This document shows, in pieces, positions 1 to 16,844 of a DNA stretch of 20,849 bases. The position numbers and the translations under genes were made by a program. Origin of the DNA: Mikrocytos mackini. Taxonomy: Eukaryota; Endomyxa; Ascetosporea; Mikrocytida; Mikrocytiidae. The notes beneath the pieces are model-generated. The model had not been told where the DNA came from. It was given only the letters and a program-made list of their open reading frames with translations, and searched no databases. The DNA is taken from the NCBI GenBank assembly GCA_030180075.1, contig JASNJN010000333.1, positions 1 to 20,849 of the forward strand. The letters run 5' to 3'. The stretch's first letter is position 1. Every line of letters begins with the position of its first letter.

Positions 1-190
1 TGGCATTCAGAACCACCAGGACCTTTGGAATAGGTTCTGTGTGGGTGAGTGGAGTCAAGGTTAAAAACCTCGGACATACCACGCGAATGCTCAGACACCT
101 TACAAGCTTACCAAGCTTGCTGAACGGTGTAGCTGCTGAACCCTCGTACAGGGTAATACGCGCCCTCAAAGAGGATAAAGATAGGGTTCA
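1..190. repeat. GC-richer fragment of an unidentified repeat
   Basis: This left edge is clearly GC-richer than the adjoining transposase remnant, and the change falls near 185-195. Two overlapping frames stay open on both strands, but I recognise no domain in any of them. It replaces the missing C-terminal part of the Merlin transposase on the minus strand, so it is probably another repeat that truncated that gene. Family unknown. Confidence 0.35.
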
Positions 191-737
191 AAAAATGTTC
201 AACAAAATTATCAATTGTTGAAATATGTTTATTTTGAATAATCCGAAGTGAAATTTTTCTGGTGTTATTATCCACCATACCAATAACGCAAAAACGACGA
301 CCCCAATGGGTTTCGTCAATTTCAACAACGTGAAAATTACCACCGATTTTATAATCATTTAAATTTAATAAATGTTCGCTGATTTTACCATGCAATATGG
401 AATAAAATCGTTGTATAGTGCGCCTATCTACGCCCGCCTTTTCTTCTAAAGAAGATCCTTCGGTCTTATAGCACATTTCATAAATTATAGAAATAAAAGT
501 CCGAATATCAATTTTTGAAAAACTAAAAAAGGAATCGGTTAAAACGCTTGTTGTTTTCTTGCAAACCGAACAACGCCAAACCGCAGGCAAATTTCTATTG
601 CGCCTATATGATTGTAGCGCCATATTGTGGTTGCAATCTTGACGTAGTCGTGCATTTTTCAAAGTGCCGATCTCCATCAACCACTCGATTGCAACACGCT
701 TTGAATGAATTTTTTCTATAAATTCTAGAAATTTCAT
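108..737 (-). pseudogene. Merlin / IS1595-type transposase, truncated
   Basis: This is the N-terminal two thirds of a DDE transposase of the Merlin (IS1595/ISXO2-like) group, which cuts and pastes DNA through a DDE/DDH active site. The frame starts at ATG 737. Residues 35-59 form a degenerate zinc ribbon (C35, H37, C56, C59). Residues 96-123 look like a helix-turn-helix. The first catalytic Asp is D141 in VEIDETHWGRR. In the family this is usually followed by a basic loop and a G-x-W-V/I-F/L-G stretch; here GRR runs almost directly into VIGMVDNNTR, suggesting a loss of about ten residues. Family similarity ends near residue 182 (VEHF, about position 192). The last 27 residues come from different, GC-rich DNA, so the second Asp and the last acidic residue are missing. 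Non-functional as it stands. The family call is from motif recognition. Confidence 0.75.
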
Positions 738-1084: not shown

Positions 1085-2335
1085 GTGCATATTGTTTAGT
1101 CCAATAATATTTTCTGGGAGAGGGTTGCTTCACGCACCCTCCCCTTGATTTATGGTTTTCCAAAATTCTGGCAGTATCGCAACAAAATCCAAAACTACTT
1201 GTAAAATTTACAAAAATGGAGAAAACGGGACTAAAATTTATTTTTTAAAAAAAATTTCCTGGGTATCGCTTCAGAGTGCAACGCGAGCCCAGGATGGAGA
1301 TGAAGAGCCCGAGGTTGCAACAACTAGCGCGACAAGGGCTCCACATTCCTCCCGGCCTTCAAAGCGGCCTATAACCCAACCCCTGACTGGTCCCCTATTA
1401 GGGAGACAATAAAGCCAGATGGGGAACCATGTTGGTCTGTCCCGTCATTAACGCTTTAACGCGGGGCCGCAAGGCCCACAATAAGAAGACGGGCCCGGAA
1501 TCAGTTCATGATTAGAGATTGGACTTTACAAATATTCGTTTTGAAAAACTTCGAATATTCGTCAAAAACCGAATTTCTGGTATTCGTTTTCCGAATATTT
1601 TTTAAAAATAATTTCAATTTTGCGAAAAATTCAAAAAATATTCGAATATTCGTTGATTTTTTGATGTGAAAAAATTAAATTTTGGAATAGGATAAAAAAT
1701 TATGCAAAATTCAGTTCAAAAAACCAGAACGATGAAATCGATATTAGAAATAAATTTATTTTGAAATTTTCAGTATATTAAGTCATTTCAAAATTCCGAA
1801 GATTCTTCGAATATTCGTTTCCTTGGAATATCTTGCTTCGAATATTTGTTCATTTTGCAAGTGTCCAATCTCTATTCATGATTCCCTGACCACAGGCTCG
1901 GCAAACCGCACAAAGGGAAGGTGAACCATGAATACCAGTTCTCAACGAGAAGGTGGTAGAACTTTGCGACAACCCTGTGGGCTCAACGCATAGACCAAAA
2001 CAAGGTCTCCGATTTATATCGCCAACTTCGAAGAAACGGAGTGGTATCGTTAGATACCACAGCGACCTTGTAAATAATACCCAAGTCACCTGGTCATTCC
2101 TTACGCGCTAAAAACCCCAAGGGGGAGAATAGGCGAAAGTAAGTGAGTGTGACAAGCTGATCTAGAAACCCTTTCAGGGTTATCGCAGGGCCTTAAACGG
2201 CTCTTTGGGAGCCAGGAGTAGGCTAGGGAGATCCAAAGTGAACCATCAAGTTGGAATGTAATCCATTGGTTTCACAAGGAAGGGCTGAAGTGGCCAGGGG
2301 ATAGTGCCTTAATTAATTAATAATCATTAATTGTT
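1085..2335. repeat. GC-richer unidentified repeat, split by a MITE
   Basis: This is a block with much higher GC than its surroundings, interrupted by the hAT-type MITE at 1513-1874. Removing the MITE and one copy of its 8-bp duplication rejoins the sequence smoothly. Short open stretches exist on both strands (for example plus 1152-1412 and minus 1850-2089) but frames break often and I recognise no domain. Near 1118-1142 is an imperfect GGGAGAGGGT / ACCCTCCCC hairpin. It could be a decayed retroelement or a structured non-coding repeat; the sequence alone does not decide. Confidence 0.35.
1513..1874. mobile_element. hAT-type MITE with TAGAGATTGGAC ends
   Basis: Non-autonomous element of 362 bp. 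Its ends are perfect inverted repeats TAGAGATTGGAC ... GTCCAATCTCTA, flanked by a perfect 8-bp duplication TTCATGAT at 1505-1512 and 1875-1882. The 8-bp duplication and TAG-type ends are the hAT signature. Several copies of the palindrome CGAATATTCG or close variants sit towards both ends. It codes for nothing and would depend on a hAT transposase supplied elsewhere. Confidence 0.85.
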
Positions 2336-4097: not shown

Positions 4098-6347
4098 TTA
4101 ATTGCAATCTACAAACGGTTTAACACTTAACAAATAATCGTCAGTATCTATATCCTCCAAAATATTTCTAATTTCGGTTTTAATTTTATTTTCAACATTA
4201 GAAAATGCTACTTCTTTCATAAAATTTCTTATCCTAATTACCATCTCTATTTTTTCCAATTCGCGAAACCGTTTTTTGTAAGCAAAGTTCAACAATTTAG
4301 CATAGTTTGTTCTCCACTTCCCATCATGTACGCATTTTTTCTTTACTTCGTCTATAAAACCATACATGAAGTCATTATCCTTTACCAGCTCTGTCTTATC
4401 TAACAATGTCAAAACTTCATCAAACATACTCCTTCTGATTTTATGCGCCTGTGTCAAAAGAAAGTTTTTTAAGTTCAACAAAGTGTGATCCTTCTTCACT
4501 AAAAGAGGCTTTAATGTATAAATTATATTGAAATTGGCCTTACTAATTTCTACTTTCAATATAAACTCCTCAAAAAACATGAATCCCTTTTCAACAATGT
4601 CTTTACTGTCTGACTTGTTAAACAAAATGATAACAAAATAAGCTATGTATTCTTTCAATAAATTGGCCTGTTTAAGTTGCTTTTCCCTTTCTGTAGAAGA
4701 TCGTATGCTAAAAGCTTTTCTTTCCGCCTTTATTATAACTTCTAACATTTTCTCTAATGTGATTTCCATTACATAGCTGTGCAAACTATCAGCTCTTCCA
4801 TTCGGTAGTGAAACTAAGCTCACTTTAATACATTCTAATATAAAGTTCAAAAGACTGTAATGCTTTGAATTGAAGTACTCAGAAAGGTCTATTATAATTT
4901 TCTTTGTTTCTGCGGATCTTTTATTCAAAAGGCAAAGTTGTAGTTCCACATAAAGCAAGGAACAAATTTTTGCTATTTCTAACTTAGAAAGACCTTCTTT
5001 GTTGATTAGATGAGGAAGTTTCTTATCAAATGCTTTGGCTAGGTTGTAACAGAACTTGAATATCTCAGGAATGTTGCTATACTTTGATTTGTTGTTTTTA
5101 AATTGTAGGAAGACATTCCGTTTTATCTTTATAGATATTTCTGAGCGAAACAATGACTTAATAAACCCGAAGAATTTGTCTATATTGTTGTCGTTTATTA
5201 TACTGTCTTTGTATTTGTCGCTGTTGTTTGTGTTGTTATTTGTATTGTTGTGGATGTGCTCTGAATGCTTGGAGAGTCTTGATAGCCCAGAGACAAGTTT
5301 TGTACTCAAGCACTTCTCAAATTCTTTTCCTGGTTCGTTCTCAGGCACCAGACTATTAATGTAAACTTTAAATGCTGTGAACAACGATGTAATTTCCGGA
5401 CGTTTGTCTAAATCAGAACAAAAACATGATTTTAAAAGAGTTAGAAAGTCCATCCCTTCAGTCGTATTTGCTAATCCTTTTATGGAAGTTGAATTAGAGA
5501 ATATTAAGTCTATCTTTGTTCCGAAGTCATGTACATAGCTATAAATAGAGTCGTCGTCCAATTGTAGTCTTGTTTGGTATTCTATTATCTCTGTCAGATT
5601 AAAAAGGCATACAGAAGGTTCAATTAGTTCTACTATTAAACATGCTACTTCGAACACTAACGAGTCTTTAAAGTTCCGGCTTCTTATTCTCTCGGTGAAT
5701 TCTGCGGATTTGCTGTGTTCGAGTTGAATTCGTTCAGGGGGGTAAATGTACGGCTCAATTGACGAGTTCAAATAAGTCGTGGAAAGCTCGTCTTCAAATA
5801 ATCCTGTGAAGTGGTTAAAATGCAGGTCGGATGCTTTTATGAACTGTTTGTCACTGAAGTTTTCTAGGATTGATACAAAGCCTATTTCATTTACGAAAAT
5901 GTCCCCTGGATTAACAAGACTTTGGTGGTCCAAATGAACAAAAAGATTCAGGAGCTGGAGAATAACGAGTTGACGGTCGAATGCCGATAAAGACGATTTG
6001 GCAGTCCATTTTCTCAAAGTATATTCTGGGACGCTGTAAAGAGCTAGGGTGTACTTTTTATGGTGCTCAACTTGGGTGGGTCGAATGAGCAAGTTTGAAT
6101 AAAGTTCGGATGTTGTGTTCTTTCCTAGAACTTCTAAATGCTTCAGATTGTTGTAGGTAATGTCTGCGTAAGGTATGATTAAAGCTTTGAAGGAAGATTC
6201 TCTATTGTTGTCGAATACTACAGTTAGAACAGATGTCAATGAATCTCGAACACCATTTCTGTTGATATTACAGCTGTGGAGCTTCCTACCTCTATTAAAT
6301 GTCTTTGGGAAGTATGTAGGAAGATTTTTCTTTGTGTAAGTTATCAT
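4098..6347 (-). CDS. VPS15: VPS15-like PI3-kinase regulatory pseudokinase, WD40-less
   Basis: Intact frame of 749 residues. VPS15 holds and regulates the class III phosphatidylinositol 3-kinase VPS34 on endosomal and autophagic membranes. The match is to the kinase-like region: residues 120-165 carry the remnant catalytic loop VNPGDIFVNE (D149 in the HxD position) and ENFS where VPS15 normally has DFx, so that Asp is replaced by N163. YIYPPERI (200-207) matches the VPS15 YIAPERF motif. Residues 228-259 match the DIFSAGCVIAELF...LFDLSQLLAY block, and DLDKRPE (312-318) the EPDKR motif. An Asn-rich linker lies at 366-388. The remainder is helical, as expected for HEAT-type repeats. The protein is about half the usual length, with no WD40 domain, and residue 2 is Ile rather than the Gly that is normally myristoylated. 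Start at ATG 6347; no upstream extension is evident. The strong block match makes this a confident family call; activity as a kinase is doubtful. Confidence 0.8.
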   Translation of the reverse strand: MITYTKKNLPTYFPKTFNRGRKLHSCNINRNGVRDSLTSVLTVVFDNNRESSFKALIIPYADITYNNLKHLEVLGKNTTSELYSNLLIRPTQVEHHKKYTLALYSVPEYTLRKWTAKSSLSAFDRQLVILQLLNLFVHLDHQSLVNPGDIFVNEIGFVSILENFSDKQFIKASDLHFNHFTGLFEDELSTTYLNSSIEPYIYPPERIQLEHSKSAEFTERIRSRNFKDSLVFEVACLIVELIEPSVCLFNLTEIIEYQTRLQLDDDSIYSYVHDFGTKIDLIFSNSTSIKGLANTTEGMDFLTLLKSCFCSDLDKRPEITSLFTAFKVYINSLVPENEPGKEFEKCLSTKLVSGLSRLSKHSEHIHNNTNNNTNNSDKYKDSIINDNNIDKFFGFIKSLFRSEISIKIKRNVFLQFKNNKSKYSNIPEIFKFCYNLAKAFDKKLPHLINKEGLSKLEIAKICSLLYVELQLCLLNKRSAETKKIIIDLSEYFNSKHYSLLNFILECIKVSLVSLPNGRADSLHSYVMEITLEKMLEVIIKAERKAFSIRSSTEREKQLKQANLLKEYIAYFVIILFNKSDSKDIVEKGFMFFEEFILKVEISKANFNIIYTLKPLLVKKDHTLLNLKNFLLTQAHKIRRSMFDEVLTLLDKTELVKDNDFMYGFIDEVKKKCVHDGKWRTNYAKLLNFAYKKRFRELEKIEMVIRIRNFMKEVAFSNVENKIKTEIRNILEDIDTDDYLLSVKPFVDCN

Positions 6348-7841: not shown

Positions 7842-7843
7842 TA

Positions 7844-8657
7844 CAGTGAACACTCGATACAACAAAGTTTTGTAAAATTCAAGACTTTTGTTTGTTATAC
7901 GCGAAAATTTTTTATACGAGGAGTAGTTCTTGGTAGAATTTTTCAAGACGTGGCGTGGTACAAATTTATATCATACTTTAAATGTGTTTTTCATCTCTAT
8001 TAACATTTATTAAAACTAGAGTTCCCAAAATTCTCGAACCTAAAATTTACGAGAATCGGAAACGGATTTATGGCCATATTTCCCGGGAAATGAGAAAAAA
8101 TTCTCGAAATTCTCGAAAATTTTCGAGAATTTTAGACGTAAAAAGTCCAGTTCCCGGGAATTGGGAACTTTAATTAAAACATAATTAATTTTTGAAAAGT
8201 GAAAAATGCATTTTAAACCAATCAATATGATATTTCTTTGATAATTTCAAAATTTATTTCGCCAAAAAAGTACTTTTTCAAAAATAATTTGTTAATGGAC
8301 TTCGAAATTTCTTCAAAATGCCATATTATATCTTAGAACCACACATCAAATAAAATAAATCATTTACGATCAAAATTTTTCAGAAAAATTCACATATTTG
8401 GAAAAAATCCCGTGTTGTTTGTTAGATTAAAATTTCATTAGTAAATTTGAAAATGAATACATTTTCATAAATTTCCATAACATTAAATTTAATCATTCTA
8501 ATACAAAAAAGAATTTCTACAAACATTTTCGGAAAATATTATTATTGACGAAAATTTTTTTCGAACAATTTGGTAGAGAATTGGCGAAATTTTTCAAATT
8601 TTTGTTTGTACTACGTCGGTTTGTTGTAGTTTTGTTTGTTATAGAGAGGATTGACTG
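7844..8657. mobile_element. Pogo-like non-autonomous element, interrupted
   Basis: The left end reads CAGTGAACACTCGATACAAC and the right end, on the other strand, CAGTCAATCCTCTCTATAAC. These are imperfect inverted repeats of pogo/Tigger type, each bordered by TA (7842-7843 and 8658-8659), the target used by that superfamily. Subterminal TTTGTTTGTTATA sequences occur at both sides. Total length is 814 bp, of which 164 are the inserted MITE and its duplication. No transposase frame. The end divergence suggests an old copy. Confidence 0.6.
8017..8172 (-). mobile_element. hAT-type MITE family B, copy 1
   Basis: Element of 156 bp with ends TAGAGTTCCCAA and TTGGGAACTTTA, flanked by a perfect 8-bp duplication ATTAAAAC (8009-8016 and 8173-8180). 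It is inverted relative to the copies at 9206 and 10567. Internal palindromes TTCCCGGGAA and TCGAAAATTTTCGA are shared with them. It sits inside the pogo-like element and is therefore younger than it. Confidence 0.9.
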
Positions 8658-8659
8658 TA

Positions 8660-8810
8660 TGCCCGCAATATTTAATTTCGAAACAAAATGTGTCTTTCTT
8701 TTATTATAAGATGTGCTTTGTCTTAAAATGCATGCATAAACTGCTGTTGCAAATTACATCTCTGTTTATTTCTTAAAATCTATTTCCCACCAAATGATAA
8801 ACGACTACAA
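8660..8810. other. Short stretch between the pogo-like element and element A
   Basis: By position this could hold the tail of the hAT transposase gene read on the minus strand beyond element A. The frame that continues from the last readable block is open for only about 13 codons across the junction and I see no hAT dimerisation motif, so it may simply be flanking DNA. Confidence 0.25.
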
Positions 8811-8818
8811 GTTTAAAC

Positions 8819-9197
8819 TAGAGGTGAGAATTTGGCCATTTATTGAGAACCGCCCGAACCGCGCCGCCGAACGGGCGGGCGGTTTCACATTTCTTAACCG
8901 TTTTATTTTCAGTGAAAATCTGAAAAATTTTGAATTTTTTAAAAAATATGTATAAAGAAAAATCATGTAAAATATACAATTAAAACGACTATTACCTTAA
9001 AATTTACCCAAACTTGTTGAAAATATAGTTTAAATGCTAAGAAAATAGAAAATCATATTTATTTTGGAAATTTCTTTCAAAAAAGATAAGTCACCTGTTA
9101 ATGAGAATTTTTTCAAAAAATGACCCCTTCACCGCCCGAAACCGAACCGCATGGTTCGGTTTCGGGCGGGCGGGCGGGCTGATAATGCTCACCTCTA
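8819..9197. mobile_element. hAT-type MITE family A with 17-bp GC hairpin
   Basis: Element of 379 bp, ends TAGAGGTGAG ... CTCACCTCTA. It is flanked by GTTTAAAC (8811-8818) and CTTTAAAC (9198-9205), a 7/8 match. Near the right end is a perfect 17-bp stem, CCGCCCGAAACCGAACC, around a GCAT loop (9132-9169). A related, shorter hairpin lies near the left end (about 8850-8885). No coding capacity. Its right-hand duplication is shared with the next element, family B copy 2. Confidence 0.85.
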
Positions 9198-9205
9198 CTT
9201 TAAAC

Positions 9206-9375
9206 TAGAGTTCCCAATTCCCGGGAATCGATTTCTCGAATCCCGGGAACTGGACTTTTTATATCAGAGAAACTCGAAAATTTTCGAGAATTTTTTCTCA
9301 TTTCCCGGGAAATATGGCCAAAAATCCGTTCTCGATTCTCGATAAATTTTAGGTCCGAGAAAATTGGGAACTCTA
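9206..9375 (+). mobile_element. hAT-type MITE family B, copy 2
   Basis: Element of 170 bp, ends TAGAGTTCCCAATT ... AATTGGGAACTCTA (internal palindromes TTCCCGGGAA, CGAAAATTTTCG). It is flanked by a perfect 8-bp CTTTAAAC at 9198-9205 and 9376-9383. It abuts family A element 8819-9197, the two sharing the central CTTTAAAC. Confidence 0.9.
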
Positions 9376-9674
9376 CTTTAAACCCTGTTTCTAAATCTAA
9401 TGTTTTGTTTTCTAATGAATCAATTGTTTCGTTTAAACAATGGTAGTAACCATATGCTTTCTCCAATTCGATGTGAATTCCTTCATCATTCACTTCCGAT
9501 TTCGCATTTTCCAATAACTTTCCTGATCCATCCATATTGTTAATTATTCTCCTTATATTGTTAAAGTTTTTAAAGTAATACTTTGTAGCTTTTAACCAGG
9601 AACCCCAATGAGTAACTATTGGTATCGGAGGGGCGCCAATTCTTTTGAATAATTTCTTCTGTACTCATTTCTGT
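9376..9674 (-). pseudogene. hAT transposase piece 4, core block
   Basis: After MITE D the gene resumes with KKLFKRIGAPPIPIVTHWGS, WLKATKYYFKNFNNI and a further helical block ending DLETGF. The P-x-P-x-x-T-x-W-G-T/S-W pattern is typical of this hAT group. An in-frame TGA lies just before the block and a one-base frame change separates it from piece 3. It ends where MITE B copy 2 begins. Confidence 0.7.
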
Positions 9675-9682
9675 GTGTCAAC

Positions 9683-9913
9683 TAGTGTGTTCGCGGGACG
9701 GGATGGCGGGAATTTTCCGAAAATTGGGAGCTCATTATTTTGAACACCAATACATTATTTTCATGAATTCGAACTTTATTTTATTCGATATCAATTAAAT
9801 AACAGGAAAAGGGTATTTGCAGGTATTTTGTAATGGATATTTCATAACAAAAAAATTTTTGCTCCCGGGATAATCCCGTGGAAGTCCAAAAAGTCGGGAA
9901 ATCGAACACACTA
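9683..9913. mobile_element. hAT-type MITE family D
   Basis: Element of 231 bp with perfect 11-bp ends TAGTGTGTTCG ... CGAACACACTA, and a perfect 8-bp duplication GTGTCAAC at 9675-9682 and 9914-9921. It contains GGGAATTTTCCGAAAATTGGGAG-like and CCCGGGATAATCCCG hairpin motifs near the ends. It interrupts the hAT transposase core. Confidence 0.85.
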
Positions 9914-9921
9914 GTGTCAAC

Positions 9922-10566
9922 TTCTTAACTGTAGCAACTAATCTATCTGCCTTTGAAAAATAATTTCTTATGTTCATAAAGCAGTTATGCAACAAATGAG
10001 AGAGACACAAGACGTGATAAAGGTTTGGGAAAAGAAAGGACAGTGTATTGAACGCTTTTATCATGTAAGATGCCGCGTCAGATATCAATAACAGGAAGTG
10101 CTCTCTTTTTAATCCCAATTTGATAACAGTGTCGTCAATTAATCTAACCATACTACCAGAATTAACCGATGAATCAGAAGACAATGATTCCACAAGGTAT
10201 GTTCTATCGGGCTGATCAATTCTTGCTATTAGAATATTTATGACAAAGTTATCATTGATATAGCTTTCGTCAATGACTAAAAAGTAATAGAACTCTTGAA
10301 GGTAATGAAAGATACTGGAAATTTTATCCCCATCTAGTTTTTGTACTAAATTTCTGGTAGTAGATTCACTTGGTAGAGGTAAGTCATACTTTGAAAAGAA
10401 ATTAGTAAGGGAAGTTCTCCGTAGTTTGGATAATGGAATGTCTATTTCTAAGAACAAAGTTATTAGATCATGTTTGAATGAATTGTCCTCGATGCACTGG
10501 CCCAGTGTTGGTGTTTTGGATATTGTAAATAAATGTGTTAGGTGGTTTTTTTACTAATTCTGTGAC
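9922..10566 (-). pseudogene. hAT transposase piece 3, catalytic core start
   Basis: The longest open piece. It continues the BED finger with GQCIEDNSFKHDLITLFLEI, then the N-terminal hAT block DIPLSKLRRTSLTNFFSKY ... PSESTTR. Two likely catalytic positions follow: D in VIDESYIN (10269-10271) and D in LLISDAASYM (10077-10079). The hAT C-x2-H motif is in HVLCLSHLLHN. A TTG at 10457 can look like a start, but the frame is open upstream of it and joins the preceding piece, so it is internal. The residues encoded past 9921 (to 9795) come from inserted MITE D and are not transposase. Confidence 0.8.
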
Positions 10567-10745
10567 TAGAGTTCCCAATTTCCGGGAATCGATTTCTCGA
10601 ATCCCGGGAACTGGACTTTTTATATCAAAAATTCTCGAAAATTTTCGAGAATTTCGAGAATTTTTTCTCATTTCCCGGGAAATATGGCCAAAAATCCGTT
10701 CTCGATTCTCGATAAATTTTAGGTTCGAGAAAATTGGGAACTCTA
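10567..10745 (+). mobile_element. hAT-type MITE family B, copy 3
   Basis: Element of 179 bp, ends TAGAGTTCCCAATT ... AATTGGGAACTCTA, with a perfect 8-bp duplication TCTGTGAC at 10559-10566 and 10746-10753. Nearly identical along its length to copy 2 except for a short internal length difference around the CGAAAATTTTCG repeats. It splits the BED finger from the core of the hAT gene. Confidence 0.92.
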
Positions 10746-10808
10746 TCTGTGACTGCCTACATTACATTTCCTTTCATATGACACACTCTTATCACATACT
10801 TTACACCA
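10746..10808 (-). pseudogene. hAT transposase piece 2, BED zinc finger
   Basis: On the minus strand this piece encodes a C-x2-C (CKVC) with SVSYERKC and then GSHRISKK, the shape of a BED-type DNA-binding finger. It is cut on one side by element 10817-11499 and on the other by MITE B copy 3 (10567-10745). Confidence 0.65.
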
Positions 10809-10816
10809 CATAAGAC

Positions 10817-11499
10817 CAGGGATGGGTTTAGGACATGTCCAAAACGTTTTGGGCAGGACATTTTTTAAACCGGTTTAATACGTTTTGGATACCGAAAAAA
10901 TTGATTTTGCGAAATAATTCGAATTTTAAAATTTTATTTAAAATGCAAATATTGAACATATTCCCAGAAAATAAGAAACAAAATAAATCCCAAATTACAA
11001 AAAATTTCCAAAATATTGGTTATAAAATCTCAAACCAAAATTTAGCAAATTTTTAAATATTTTCGGCAAAAAATTTGCCGAAAAATTCTCCCTACCAAAT
11101 TTTATGTTTTATCCGGCCAAAACGTCCAAAACGTTTTGAATGGGTCGGTGTAAACCAGAGATGAGGATAACCGATCCGACCGCCCGAACCCGACCCGATT
11201 GGGTCGGGTTCGGGCGGAAGAAGGACCCAAAATTGCTAATAATTCTCAACAAATCATGAAACATGAAAATAATGAAAATACAAAAATATTAATTTCAGAT
11301 ATACATTCCAGAAATTAAGCAAACGAGGGGAAGGTTCCCAATGGAGTATTTGCGGCATAGGTCTAAAAAAATTTGGACACCCACTCATATTTTGAGGTAA
11401 ATTTAAACAGAATTTTTGAAATTACATGATAAATTACCACCAAAAATTTTATATTTTCTACCCGAAATTCTCATGTCTGGTTTAAACCTGCCAACCCTG
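10817..11499. mobile_element. hAT-type element with CAGGG ends, itself interrupted
   Basis: The left end is CAGGGATGGG; the right end, on the other strand, is CAGGGTTGGC. It is flanked by a perfect 8-bp duplication CATAAGAC at 10809-10816 and 11500-11507. The palindrome CCAAAACGTTTTGG occurs near the left end (10839-10852) and, in 13-base form, near the right arm (11126-11138). The span of 683 bp includes the nested element 11156-11479. The ORF at 10835-11056 lies wholly inside and resembles no transposase. Confidence 0.8.
11156..11479. mobile_element. Nested hAT-type element related to family A
   Basis: Ends CAGAGATGAGGAT and, on the other strand, CAGACATGAGAAT. It is flanked by GTGTAAAC (11148-11155) and GTTTAAAC (11480-11487), a 7/8 match. 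It holds a perfect 17-bp stem CCGCCCGAACCCGACCC around a GATT loop (11180-11217), the same architecture as element 8819-9197. It sits inside the CAGGG element and so is the younger of the two. Confidence 0.7.
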
Positions 11500-11507
11500 C
11501 ATAAGAC

Positions 11508-11590
11508 CCGTTTCGTTTCATAAAACTCATCGGGAATTTGGTTATGTATTTCTTCGTTAGTTCTGAGTTGGGTGCTTTTTGCTTTGCCAT
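11508..11590 (-). pseudogene. hAT transposase piece 1, N-terminus
   Basis: From ATG 11590 the frame begins MAKQKAPNSELTKKYITKF and runs to the duplication CATAAGAC, where element 10817-11499 interrupts it. One base must be dropped at the junction for the frame to run on into the BED finger in piece 2. The annotated 79-residue ORF in another frame here (from 11642) is a shadow. Confidence 0.6.
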
Positions 11591-12019: not shown

Positions 12020-13040
12020 CCTGACGAATTGGCCCGAGGCGAGCACTCGCTTGAATAGAAGGTTGAGCTAATATGTAAAATATTTTATACAAACCTGGAG
12101 AGCGGACAAAATTTGGACCAGCCCAGATTTGGGTTGTTATTTTAATTTTATAAGAACAAAATGTTTTGTTGATCTAAATATTATGATTTCGGAGTGTTAT
12201 GAATTAATATTTGTTTTGATATTGTTTGCAACGATCTAATTGTTAAATATTTATATTTTCGTACATATAATGTATAAATTTTGAGCTAGACCAACATCTG
12301 GGTCAGCCCGAGCGTGGACTTTCCCGAAATTTATCTTTTCTCACAAACATGTAGATTTGCTGCCAGAATGTAGAAAATGATTAACCAAAAACATTCTTAT
12401 AAAATAAAAAGCGATAAAATTTTAGTTTGGATGATATTTTCACAAAATTTCATCTTTATATGCATTTCAAAATGTATAATTCGGTGATTATTTTGTTTAC
12501 TATCCTATTTTCATGTTTTTACGATTATATGTTTAAAATAACTCGCTCGACTACTCGACTCGGCTTAAACCACAAGCTCGGAACTAGACATTCAATATTT
12601 ATCGAAAATGGAATGATTGCTATCTCGAAACGAATAATCGATATGATATATCGATTTTCAAATATTTCCATGATTTCTATGTTGTTTTCAGCACATTTCG
12701 TTGGGATTTCGTTAGAATTCCGTAATTTCCAGACTCATAAACATTCAAAAATACTACCAAATCTCTATAAATGTGTCAAATTATATATAATGAATGTGGG
12801 AACATATTTCTGAGTATATAATAGATGTTGTTCGAGGTATTTAACTTTCACAAAATGAAATACCCTTTATTTAAAGGACTATTTAACCATAATTTCCCAT
12901 TTTATTTAATATCAAAAATTATCCCATTTCGATGTAATCATCAAAAATCTCGAATGTTTTCGTTATGCATCTCGATCAAGATCAAGACTTTGAATGTCTA
13001 CTCGGAGCCCGGGTAATTTTTCAATTCGGAACTCGTAGAA
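12020..13040. repeat. Cluster of GC-rich inverted-repeat patches
   Basis: Several GC-rich patches in AT-rich DNA pair in inverted orientation. GGACCAGCCCAGATTTGG (about 12116) pairs imperfectly with the patch at about 12290-12310. GCTCGGAACTAGACATTC (about 12575) pairs with GAATGTCTACTCGGAGC (about 12990). Such patches resemble the subterminal palindromes of the MITEs in this window, but I could not find clean termini or 8-bp duplications. ORFs at 12427-12813 and 12825-13016 overlap these repeats, have no recognisable domain and are probably chance. Confidence 0.4.
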
Positions 13041-13250: not shown

Positions 13251-13631
13251 TAGGGTTTAAAATGACGGGTCACGGGTAATGGTATTAATCAACCAATATA
13301 CACAACAACAACTCATTAACGTTTGTGAAAATGATCGTACGTGCGTATTTAGCAATACTGTATATTTTATATTAATTTTCGTATAAATTATTAAAAAATC
13401 TTATAATATTTTGACGTTTTAGAAATTTTCCTGAAAACCCATTTTCAATTACCCGGGTAACGGGTAATTGATTATTAAGCCGTATGTGAAGGTATTTCAT
13501 AAAATAAAAGTGCGCAAATCGATATCTGGAAAAAATTGAGGTTGTCATAAAAATTTCAAATTTTTTAATGATAATAAACCTATATAAAAATACATTTTAA
13601 ATTTGTCGCTACCCGACCATTTTAAACCCTA
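13251..13631. mobile_element. hAT-type MITE with TAGGGTTTAAAATG ends
   Basis: Element of 381 bp with perfect 14-bp ends TAGGGTTTAAAATG ... CATTTTAAACCCTA. The flanks TATGTATT (13243-13250) and CATGTATT (13632-13639) match at 7 of 8 positions. It contains the palindrome TTACCCGGGTAA (13449-13460) and several ACGGGTAAT repeats. No coding capacity. Confidence 0.75.
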
Positions 13632-15207: not shown

Positions 15208-16844
15208 CGAGCCTAAAGTTCACGATTAATATCTTAACAGAACAGAAAAAAGTTAAATTTTCATTTCTTAAAGTTCCCGATACACATATTAATGAACTGC
15301 CCGACTTCGACGACAGTTTTTTCTTCGCTTTTACCACAAACGAACAGTATGAAAGCTTTAAAGACTTGAATATATCAATTATTATGGCCGATAGCACTTT
15401 CGGTACAAACCACTATAATTTTCCTTTGATTGTATTCGGAACACTAAATCAAAAGCAAGTATTTACTCCATTCCTATATATAATAACAAGTAAAGAAAAT
15501 ACTTCGATAGTTAGCTTTGTATTGAAAAAATGGAAAATTGAATTGAATATAAACATAAGCCCCAAAGTTGTAATGAGCGATTTATCGCCAATATTCTTCA
15601 ACGCTTGTAAGGATAACTTTGGAAATGGTTTGAAATGGTTGTTTTGTCAATGGCACTTTAAGAAAGCCATCAAACGCCAACTTGTAAGAAAAGTTAAATT
15701 TTGTGATAACCGCCAAATTATTGACAAGAGATTTGAAACACTGACTAAAATCCCCGATGAGTCATTGTTTAAGAAAAAGCTCAAAACGTTCCTAAACTTA
15801 TGTAAAAGAATTGAGCCGGAATTTTATGACTACTTCAATGGGCTGTATGGACACAATACTTCTTCGTGGTCGTTATATGGGCGAATTAATGCAGAAATAA
15901 ATACAAATATGTTTTTTGAAGCGTTCTTTGGGATGCTGAAAAGAAAGTTTTTGTGTGAAAATTCCAAAAATAGAATAGATTTCTTGACCAACACTTTGAT
16001 ACAAATTGACAAGCATCTCAAAGTTAACCATTTGCGAGCTCAAATATCAACACAGATTCAATACCAACCTTACCGATGCCGGATCGCAAACACAAGACAC
16101 AAAACTAGCCTAACATTAAATCCGAAGAAATTTGCATACAACAATGAAACGAATATAATGCAATACAAAAACTATGAGATCACTAGGGGAAGTTGTAAAA
16201 ATTGCAAGGTGAATTGCAAGATAATGTGTCTGCACTGCGGAATTTGCTTCTACAGGTATCGTTGTACATGCTTGTCGTTTCTAAGGAGAAAAGAGATTTG
16301 CAAGCATGTTCACCGTACGCATCTATTAATCCAATCGAATCTGGTTGAACACTCTATGAATATGAAGATAACAGAGCACAGTGAAAAAAGAAATGGCAAA
16401 AATGACTTGGTATTGTTGAAACAATCCATGATATCTGAACATGAACACGGAGGGGTTGAATCAAGAGAAACAGATTCAAAAGAGACGAGTATATTAGATA
16501 TAGAAAGGCCATATAGTAACAAAGATGAAAAAAAAGCCATGGCCGATAGGCAATCATTATTTAGTCGTTTGGAAATCACTGTAGATCAAGCCAACAAAGA
16601 GGATATATTATGCAAGAACAAAATGAAGAGAGAGTGTAAGGATATTTTAGAAGAAATCCGAGAAAAACTTGATGATAGTAATAATTTCATCAGGTTGAGT
16701 AAGCTAAAAAACGATTTACTTGTTCTACGTAACTACATTGGTCATCAAAGTACAACAGCCATGGATGAAGAGAAGACCATCCTATCCATTGATAGAAGCA
16801 TGAAGAGGAAGCATCCTACACAACGTAGCTATTATTCTAAATGA
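15171..16844 (+). CDS. MULE transposase part 3, DDE core and SWIM finger
   Basis: Open from just after TAG 15168-15170. It starts with the typical pre-core stretch (DDITSLKF ... DDSFFFAFTTNEQYESF). Numbered from ATG 15366, the catalytic residues are D9 (IIMADSTFGTN), D72 (VVMSDLSP) with the CQWH motif at 94-97, and E185 (NMFFEAFFGMLKRK). Spacings of 63 and 113 residues fit the family. A SWIM finger follows: C300-x-C302, C312-x-H314. The tail (about 330-492) is charged, with a predicted coiled-coil-like segment ECKDILEEIREKLDD. ATG 15366 is internal to the real gene. All signature residues are intact. Confidence 0.9.
   Translation, partial: VQNPSLCSFDDITSLKFTINILTEQKKVKFSFLKVPDTHINELPDFDDSFFFAFTTNEQYESFKDLNISIIMADSTFGTNHYNFPLIVFGTLNQKQVFTPFLYIITSKENTSIVSFVLKKWKIELNINISPKVVMSDLSPIFFNACKDNFGNGLKWLFCQWHFKKAIKRQLVRKVKFCDNRQIIDKRFETLTKIPDESLFKKKLKTFLNLCKRIEPEFYDYFNGLYGHNTSSWSLYGRINAEINTNMFFEAFFGMLKRKFLCENSKNRIDFLTNTLIQIDKHLKVNHLRAQISTQIQYQPYRCRIANTRHKTSLTLNPKKFAYNNETNIMQYKNYEITRGSCKNCKVNCKIMCLHCGICFYRYRCTCLSFLRRKEICKHVHRTHLLIQSNLVEHSMNMKITEHSEKRNGKNDLVLLKQSMISEHEHGGVESRETDSKETSILDIERPYSNKDEKKAMADRQSLFSRLEITVDQANKEDILCKNKMKRECKDILEEIREKLDDSNNFIRLSKLKNDLLVLRNYIGHQSTTAMDEEKTILSIDRSMKRKHPTQRSYYSK

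What the first reader, a model, noticed from the sequence alone, without database searches (positions are those of the whole stretch)
8811..11590. A hAT transposase gene shredded by hAT-type MITEs
Within 2.8 kb at least four non-autonomous elements interrupt or abut one BED-finger hAT transposase gene, and two more are nested or abutting. All carry 8-bp duplications (four perfect, two at 7/8). The gene is readable piece by piece across the insertions. This suggests either a safe landing zone or a preference of hAT elements for a hAT copy.
Basis: partly seen in the sequence, partly recalled or inferred. Interest (0 to 1): 0.75.

Follow-up and report, generated by a model that had tools for sequence, protein, structure and literature searches.

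The report
MITEs stacked on TTTAAA target sites
A dead transposase gene in an AT-rich eukaryote genome really is cut up by small hAT-type mobile elements, but nothing points to a general attraction to such genes; part of the pile-up fits one element family that favours an 8-letter palindrome, which each insertion duplicates and another element family carries inside it.

Summary
Six non-autonomous elements with hAT hallmarks lie at the stated place, four with perfect and two with 7/8 8-bp duplications. A natural relative in the same genome (C712) is collinear with all four gene pieces and lacks E3, E4 and E5; full-length transposases carry the pieces in the same order. The gene's last ~90 codons are missing, and E1 marks that edge.

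A preference for hAT copies is not supported. Outside the window, listed E1- and E2-family elements lie within 1.5 kb of hAT matches 8 times, 7.9 expected. What is unusual is target choice: 74 of 152 exact E1 ends abut GTTTAAAC and 94 of 152 abut TTTAAAN, against 4 of 109 for the E2 family. E5-family stretches carry GTTTAAAC about 68 times more densely than background. E1 occupies the same E5 site at 10 of 81 places. So E1 beside E2, and E6 inside E5, fit target-directed insertion; E2-E5 in the gene look like ordinary insertions. A MITE-tolerant zone is not excluded. The host was not identified.

The parts
9376..11590 (-). Remnant of a hAT transposase gene in four pieces: 11500-11590, 10746-10816, 9914-10566, 9376-9682 (5' to 3'); 3' end missing
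   Evidence: tblastn of the pieces apart to P0001/P0004; collinear relative C712; DUF659 E 7.6e-6, below the curated cut-off
8819..9197 (.). E1, MITE with ends TAGAGGTGAG; GTTTAAAC/CTTTAAAC
   Evidence: 152 exact ends TAGAGGTGAGAATT in the genome
9206..9375 (.). E2, palindromic MITE with ends TAGAGTTCCC; duplication CTTTAAAC
   Evidence: right flank 31-32 of 32 in C712/C160
9683..9913 (.). E3, MITE with ends TAGTGTGTTCG; duplication GTGTCAAC
   Evidence: empty site in C712 and C160
10567..10745 (.). E4, same family as E2; duplication TCTGTGAC
   Evidence: empty site in C712
10817..11499 (.). E5, MITE with ends CAGGG(A/T)TGG, containing E6; duplication CATAAGAC
   Evidence: empty site in C712
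11156..11479 (.). E6, MITE nested in E5 at the GTTTAAAC site 12 bp inside E5's right end; GTGTAAAC/GTTTAAAC
   Evidence: the same E5 site holds E1 in 10 of 81 E5-type right ends
8017..8172 (.). Further copy of the E2/E4 family, outside the gene; duplication ATTAAAAC

Best explanation
A decayed hAT transposase gene in a MITE-rich stretch was hit by separate insertions of several hAT-type MITE families, each making an 8-bp duplication. Two contacts in the pile come from target sequence. E1-type elements insert mostly at GTTTAAAC or close variants. E2 happened to use CTTTAAAC in the gene and so doubled it, and E1 now ends at one copy. E5-family elements carry GTTTAAAC sites, one 12 bp from the right end, and E6 (here) or E1 (elsewhere) land there. 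A palindromic target that is duplicated at each insertion makes a fresh landing site each time. That the gene is a hAT is incidental. Shown: bounds, duplications, empty sites, target bias, shared E5 site. Inferred: order of insertion (E2 before E1, E5 before E6), mobilisation by a hAT transposase, loss of the gene's 3' end by a break or recombination at E1.
For: 74 of 152 exact E1 ends have GTTTAAAC directly outside and 94 of 152 TTTAAAN, against 4 of 109 for the E2 family, two of those four being E2 here; background 10 GTTTAAAC in 182,466 bp of hAT and MULE loci. Of 21 E1 copies read at both ends 18 have identical 8-mers, 14 of them GTTTAAAC. Flanks outside are unrelated in many copies. E5-family stretches hold 15 free GTTTAAAC in 4,045 bp. 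E1 lies in exactly the right-end site of E5 in 10 of 81 places, near it (20 bp) in 2 more. No excess of E1/E2 at hAT genes.
Against: E2, E3, E4 and E5 used other targets, so target bias does not explain why four elements hit 1.1 kb of one gene. 78 of 152 E1 ends lack exact GTTTAAAC. E1's two flanks differ and its left side is not hAT, so E1's arrival next to E2 was not necessarily a plain insertion. E6's own target preference was seen only here; the one other E6 relative looked at (L035) has no GTTTAAAC on the side read. Some counted loci are near-identical (C138/C563) and the counts are not corrected for this.
Confidence: 0.7

Rival explanations
1. Lenient zone: MITEs of all kinds pile up here because the stretch is unconstrained; target sequence adds little.
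For: Window 0.48 hAT-like candidates per kb against 0.08 and 0.02 in hAT and MULE loci. E2 and E1 copies cluster with their own kind within 3 kb: 12 pairs against 2.0 and 6 against 1.7 expected.
Against: Does not predict the E1 target bias or the repeated use of one E5 site. The window was picked for its density. Some E2 'pairs' may be the two ends of one altered element.
Confidence: 0.4
2. hAT MITEs prefer hAT genes, for example through transposase bound at or made near its own gene.
For: This locus, and an E1 inside one further hAT gene seen in C138 and C563. MULE loci have fewer E1/E2 than expected, 1 against 6.6 within 1.5 kb.
Against: hAT matches have background numbers: 1 against 1.9 inside, 3 against 3.9 within 500 bp, 8 against 7.9 within 1.5 kb, window left out.
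Confidence: 0.06
3. One E5+E1 composite was amplified; the shared site reflects descent, not repeated insertion.
For: Several E5-nested E1 copies have the same orientation.
Against: E1 is inverted relative to E5 in C228, and E5-nested E1 copies are not each other's nearest relatives in most cases.
Confidence: 0.15
4. GTTTAAAC is the outer part of E1's inverted repeat, not a target.
For: The 8-mer is its own reverse complement, so both readings fit copies flanked by it.
Against: CATTAAAG, GTTTAATG and GTTTAAAG flank E1 copies as direct repeats; 78 of 152 ends lack the 8-mer.
Confidence: 0.04
5. The join of the left flank and hAT through E1 is an assembly error.
For: E1's flanks are unequal, the left side is not hAT, and contig C445, 479 of 480 bases identical, ends inside E1.
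Against: C445 agrees with the window through the first 259 bp of E1. The other five elements do not depend on it.
Confidence: 0.25

Closest known systems
hAT-like MITEs of Nosema bombycis (PMC4405373; abstract and passages seen)
   Same: hAT-like MITEs with 8-bp duplications in a small parasite genome (8 families, 309 elements in N. bombycis)
   Different: The passages seen give no fixed target 8-mer; 'nested' does not occur in that text
hobo and P element target motifs (PMC3276498; passages seen)
   Same: 8-bp palindromic target motifs, GTNCGNAC for hobo (a hAT) and GTCCGGAC for P
   Different: Those are consensus motifs; here one exact 8-mer flanks about half of all exact ends, and a second MITE family carries it inside
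Nested plant LTR retrotransposons (PMC6911290; abstract and outline seen)
   Same: Nesting is not random and shows a preference for palindromes
   Different: Another class of element; the palindrome preference there is described as weak
Mobile elements of mikrocytids (PMC10245619, PMC11069148, PMC9998036; passages seen)
   Same: AT-rich parasite genomes with many transposons, MULEs included; hAT relative P0004 (44% identity) bears an accession of series GAHX01, listed as Mikrocytos mackini in PMC9998036
   Different: The host here is not identified, and a mobile gene at 44% identity does not name it

Membership tests
hAT-type MITE (E1-E6) | 8-bp target site duplication | tested here: met
   8/8 in E2-E5, 7/8 in E1 and E6; 18 of 21 E1 copies identical at both ends
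hAT-type MITE (E1-E6) | Short terminal inverted repeats | tested here: met
   10 of 10 in E1-E4, 9 of 10 in E6; E5 weaker, 8 of 9 outermost bases
hAT-type MITE (E1-E6) | Moved by a hAT transposase | not testable with these tools
   No autonomous element with E1 ends was found; two longer E1-ended stretches (C372, C150) could not be read
hAT transposase (the remnant) | hAT core homology (DUF659) | tested here: met
   E 7.6e-6 but below the curated cut-off; relatives P0001-P0120 are DUF659/hAT proteins in part by precomputed Pfam; P0005 over the cut-off
hAT transposase (the remnant) | C-terminal hAT dimerisation domain | tested here: not met
   That part (residues 366-456 of P0001) is missing from the window; weak, below cut-off, in the C712 copy. 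A truncated gene, not a non-member
hAT transposase (the remnant) | BED zinc finger at the N-terminus | tested here: inconclusive
   No Pfam zf-BED match in 5 proteins at E 0.5, 4 of them full-length relatives; a Cys/His pattern is visible by eye in P0001/P0004

The most novel reading that the evidence does not exclude
E5-family elements act as landing pads: their repeated GGTTTAAACC motifs are binding sites of a hAT transposase, and the bound transposase steers E1-type MITEs into them. Target choice and end recognition would be two uses of one DNA-binding domain, giving self-extending chains of MITEs.
Probability: 0.12. Interest if true: 0.65.

Novelty: new variant of a known kind. Interest (0 to 1): 0.4.

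Why it matters
hAT elements are usually described with loose target motifs (hobo: GTNCGNAC, PMC3276498). A natural family with one exact palindromic 8-mer at about half of its exact ends, remaking its target at each insertion, gives a simple testable cause for nested and abutting MITEs without a preference for transposon genes. It also warns against reading a pile of MITEs in one gene as attraction to that gene.

Tried and rejected
Preference for hAT genes: not supported in contigs C1-C498 for the two families tested (one search was a first run with part of the weaker hAT rows left out, 7 against 7.3, and one search has all rows: 113, 81 and 82). GTTTAAAC as part of the inverted repeat: rejected through direct repeats. 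One amplified E5+E1 composite as the only source: unlikely. Host identification: the frame at 4098-6347 gave no relatives at E 0.001; the microsporidian rRNA model did not complete; an early guess, microsporidian, was dropped for lack of evidence. PDB sequence search and plasmid search gave nothing. A random genome sample as density control could not be fetched.

Full report
What is there. A structural scan of the window gives 26 hits, 12 with TIR GC of at least 0.4; five shuffles gave 2-6 and 0-2. Some of the 26 pair arms of different related elements; E5 is missed because its ends match less well, so counts from this scan are lower bounds.

The gene. Searched piece by piece on the minus strand, the four pieces match P0001 and P0004 (456 aa each) in order: about residues 1-30, 30-52, 55-266 and 272-365. 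The two short pieces are weak alone: E 0.018 and 2e-8 for P0001, 1.7e-4 and 5e-7 for P0004, in a very small database. No piece matches residues 366-456. Pfam gives DUF659 at E 7.6e-6, below its cut-off.

Empty sites. C712 is collinear with all four pieces at 92-94% and lacks E3, E4 and E5; C160 lacks E3 and its match breaks off at an element with ends CAGAGGTGTCA. At E3 the matching flanks overlap by exactly 8 bp in both relatives. At E4 and E5 small length differences lower the 32-bp scores (22 and 29, 31 and 23 of 32), while the BLAST pieces overlap by 9 bp. At E2 only the right flank can be compared (31 and 32 of 32), because the left side of the gene is gone.

The edge at E1. The 157 bp left of E1 occur once more, in C445, at 100%. 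C445 agrees with the window at 479 of 480 bases and ends inside E1; it is probably an allelic or duplicate contig. Unequal flanks and the lost gene end fit a recombination or deletion at E1, or an assembly join; this is open. Another E1, at L021, has quite unlike flanks.

Attraction to hAT genes? Genome matches: 81 to PF05699, 82 to DUF659, 113 to this gene's protein, overlapping lists. The place lists are capped (first 100 of 152 and of 109 ends), so the test uses contigs C1-C498: 100 E1 ends and 83 E2 ends, giving 68 and 75 inferred elements, 135 merged hAT loci and 123 MULE loci. With the window left out, E1+E2 lie inside hAT matches once (1.9 expected), within 500 bp 3 times (3.9), within 1.5 kb 8 times (7.9). 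For MULE: 0 (1.0), 0 (2.9) and 1 (6.6; P 0.011). hAT genes are at background, MULE genes perhaps below it; the MULE list is itself the best 150 of 419 candidates. Expectations assume contigs of like size. An E1 splits one further hAT gene, seen in C138 and C563, whose E1 copies are 99.7% identical, so they count as one. Structural candidates: window 10 in 20.8 kb, 27 hAT loci 7 in 87.4 kb (L049/L050 are duplicates), 30 MULE loci 2 in 95.1 kb; these loci lean towards well-preserved genes.

Target choice. Of 152 exact E1 ends, 74 have GTTTAAAC directly outside and 94 have TTTAAAN. The E2 family has TTTAAAN at 4 of 109 ends, two of them E2 in this window; Fisher P 1e-24, not corrected for related loci. 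Background is 10 GTTTAAAC in 182,466 bp after dropping E5 stretches and sites touching MITE ends. Of 21 copies read at both ends, 18 have identical 8-mers: 14 GTTTAAAC, and one each of CATTAAAG, GTTTAATG, GTTTAAAG and CTTTAAAG. The other three are the window's E1 (7/8), one in L023 (7/8) and L021. These 21 were found by similarity to a query that included the 8-mers; the 74 of 152 is free of that. Direct repeats of non-palindromic variants show that the 8-mer is target and not element.

Landing sites in E5. Thirteen E5-family stretches in the fetched loci hold 15 free GTTTAAAC in 4,045 bp, 68 times background by odds ratio; 5 of the 13 hold none free, the window's own E5 part among them. The right-end pattern GTTTAAACCTGCCAACCCTG is found 81 times at up to 2 mismatches. 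E1 sits in exactly that 8-mer in 10 of 81 (C83, C84, C228, C402, C404, C444, C571, C597, C620, C712) and within 20 bp in C643 and C686. In the window E6 has this site. Orientation and nearest relatives argue for several separate events. Chains exist: in C469 two E1 copies stand 19 bp apart, and in L017 two larger elements with ends CAGAGGTGTCA share one GTTTAAAC.

Reading. The pile is ordinary in kind: a dead gene in a MITE-rich stretch. Two of its contacts are explained by target sequence. E3, E4 and E5 used other targets, so the hits in the gene itself remain either chance picked out after the fact or a lenient zone; E2 and E1 also cluster with their own kind.

Literature. Passages of PMC3276498 give GTNCGNAC for hobo and GTCCGGAC for P. 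PMC4405373 reports hAT-like MITEs in Nosema (abstract and passages). PMC6911290 reports non-random nesting of plant LTR elements (abstract). PMC3942097 passages say that hAT groups Ac and Buster differ in target selection. A search for GTTTAAAC with transposon and target site gave 4 papers, none on hAT by title and abstract start. Searches on hAT target palindromes and nested MITEs listed nothing that by title or abstract start describes a family like E1; only listings were seen, and most subscription papers are not held. That hAT consensus motifs are loose in general is recalled beyond these papers.

Limits. P0004 (44% identity) bears a GAHX01 accession, listed as Mikrocytos mackini in PMC9998036; that does not name the host.

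Noticed in passing
window 1513-1874: Another hAT-like MITE, ends TAGAGATTGG, perfect 8-bp duplication TTCATGAT; part of it (1547-1818) is 74% like a stretch of C712 (L009:2625-2885).
   Followed up: no
window 12585-13000 and 13251-13631: Two more hAT-like candidates with 10-bp end matches and 7/8 duplications; a copy of the second family lies in C560 (L012:4008-4387) with an 8/8 duplication.
   Followed up: partly
window 7843-8660: By eye, ends like those of a pogo/Tc1-type element (recalled, no test), with the E2-family copy 8017-8172 nested in it.
   Followed up: no
window 15366-16844: 492-codon frame with a MULE transposase domain, E 1.1e-10; at least 150 MULE matches in the genome.
   Followed up: no
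window 108-737: 209-codon frame; no Pfam match at E 0.01. It resembles a Merlin/IS1016-type transposase by eye (recalled, untested).
   Followed up: no
window 4098-6347: 749-codon frame, no Pfam match at E 0.01 and no relatives at E 0.001 among the candidates scored.
   Followed up: partly
L021:1336-1711 (C494): E1 copy with unlike flanks GTATATAC and CTTTAAAC, like the window's E1 a candidate product of recombination between E1 copies.
   Followed up: no
L010:4585-5223 (C160): Element with ends CAGAGGTGTCA where the C160 hAT copy breaks off; flanks GTTTGAAT and CTTTAGAG do not match as a duplication.
   Followed up: no
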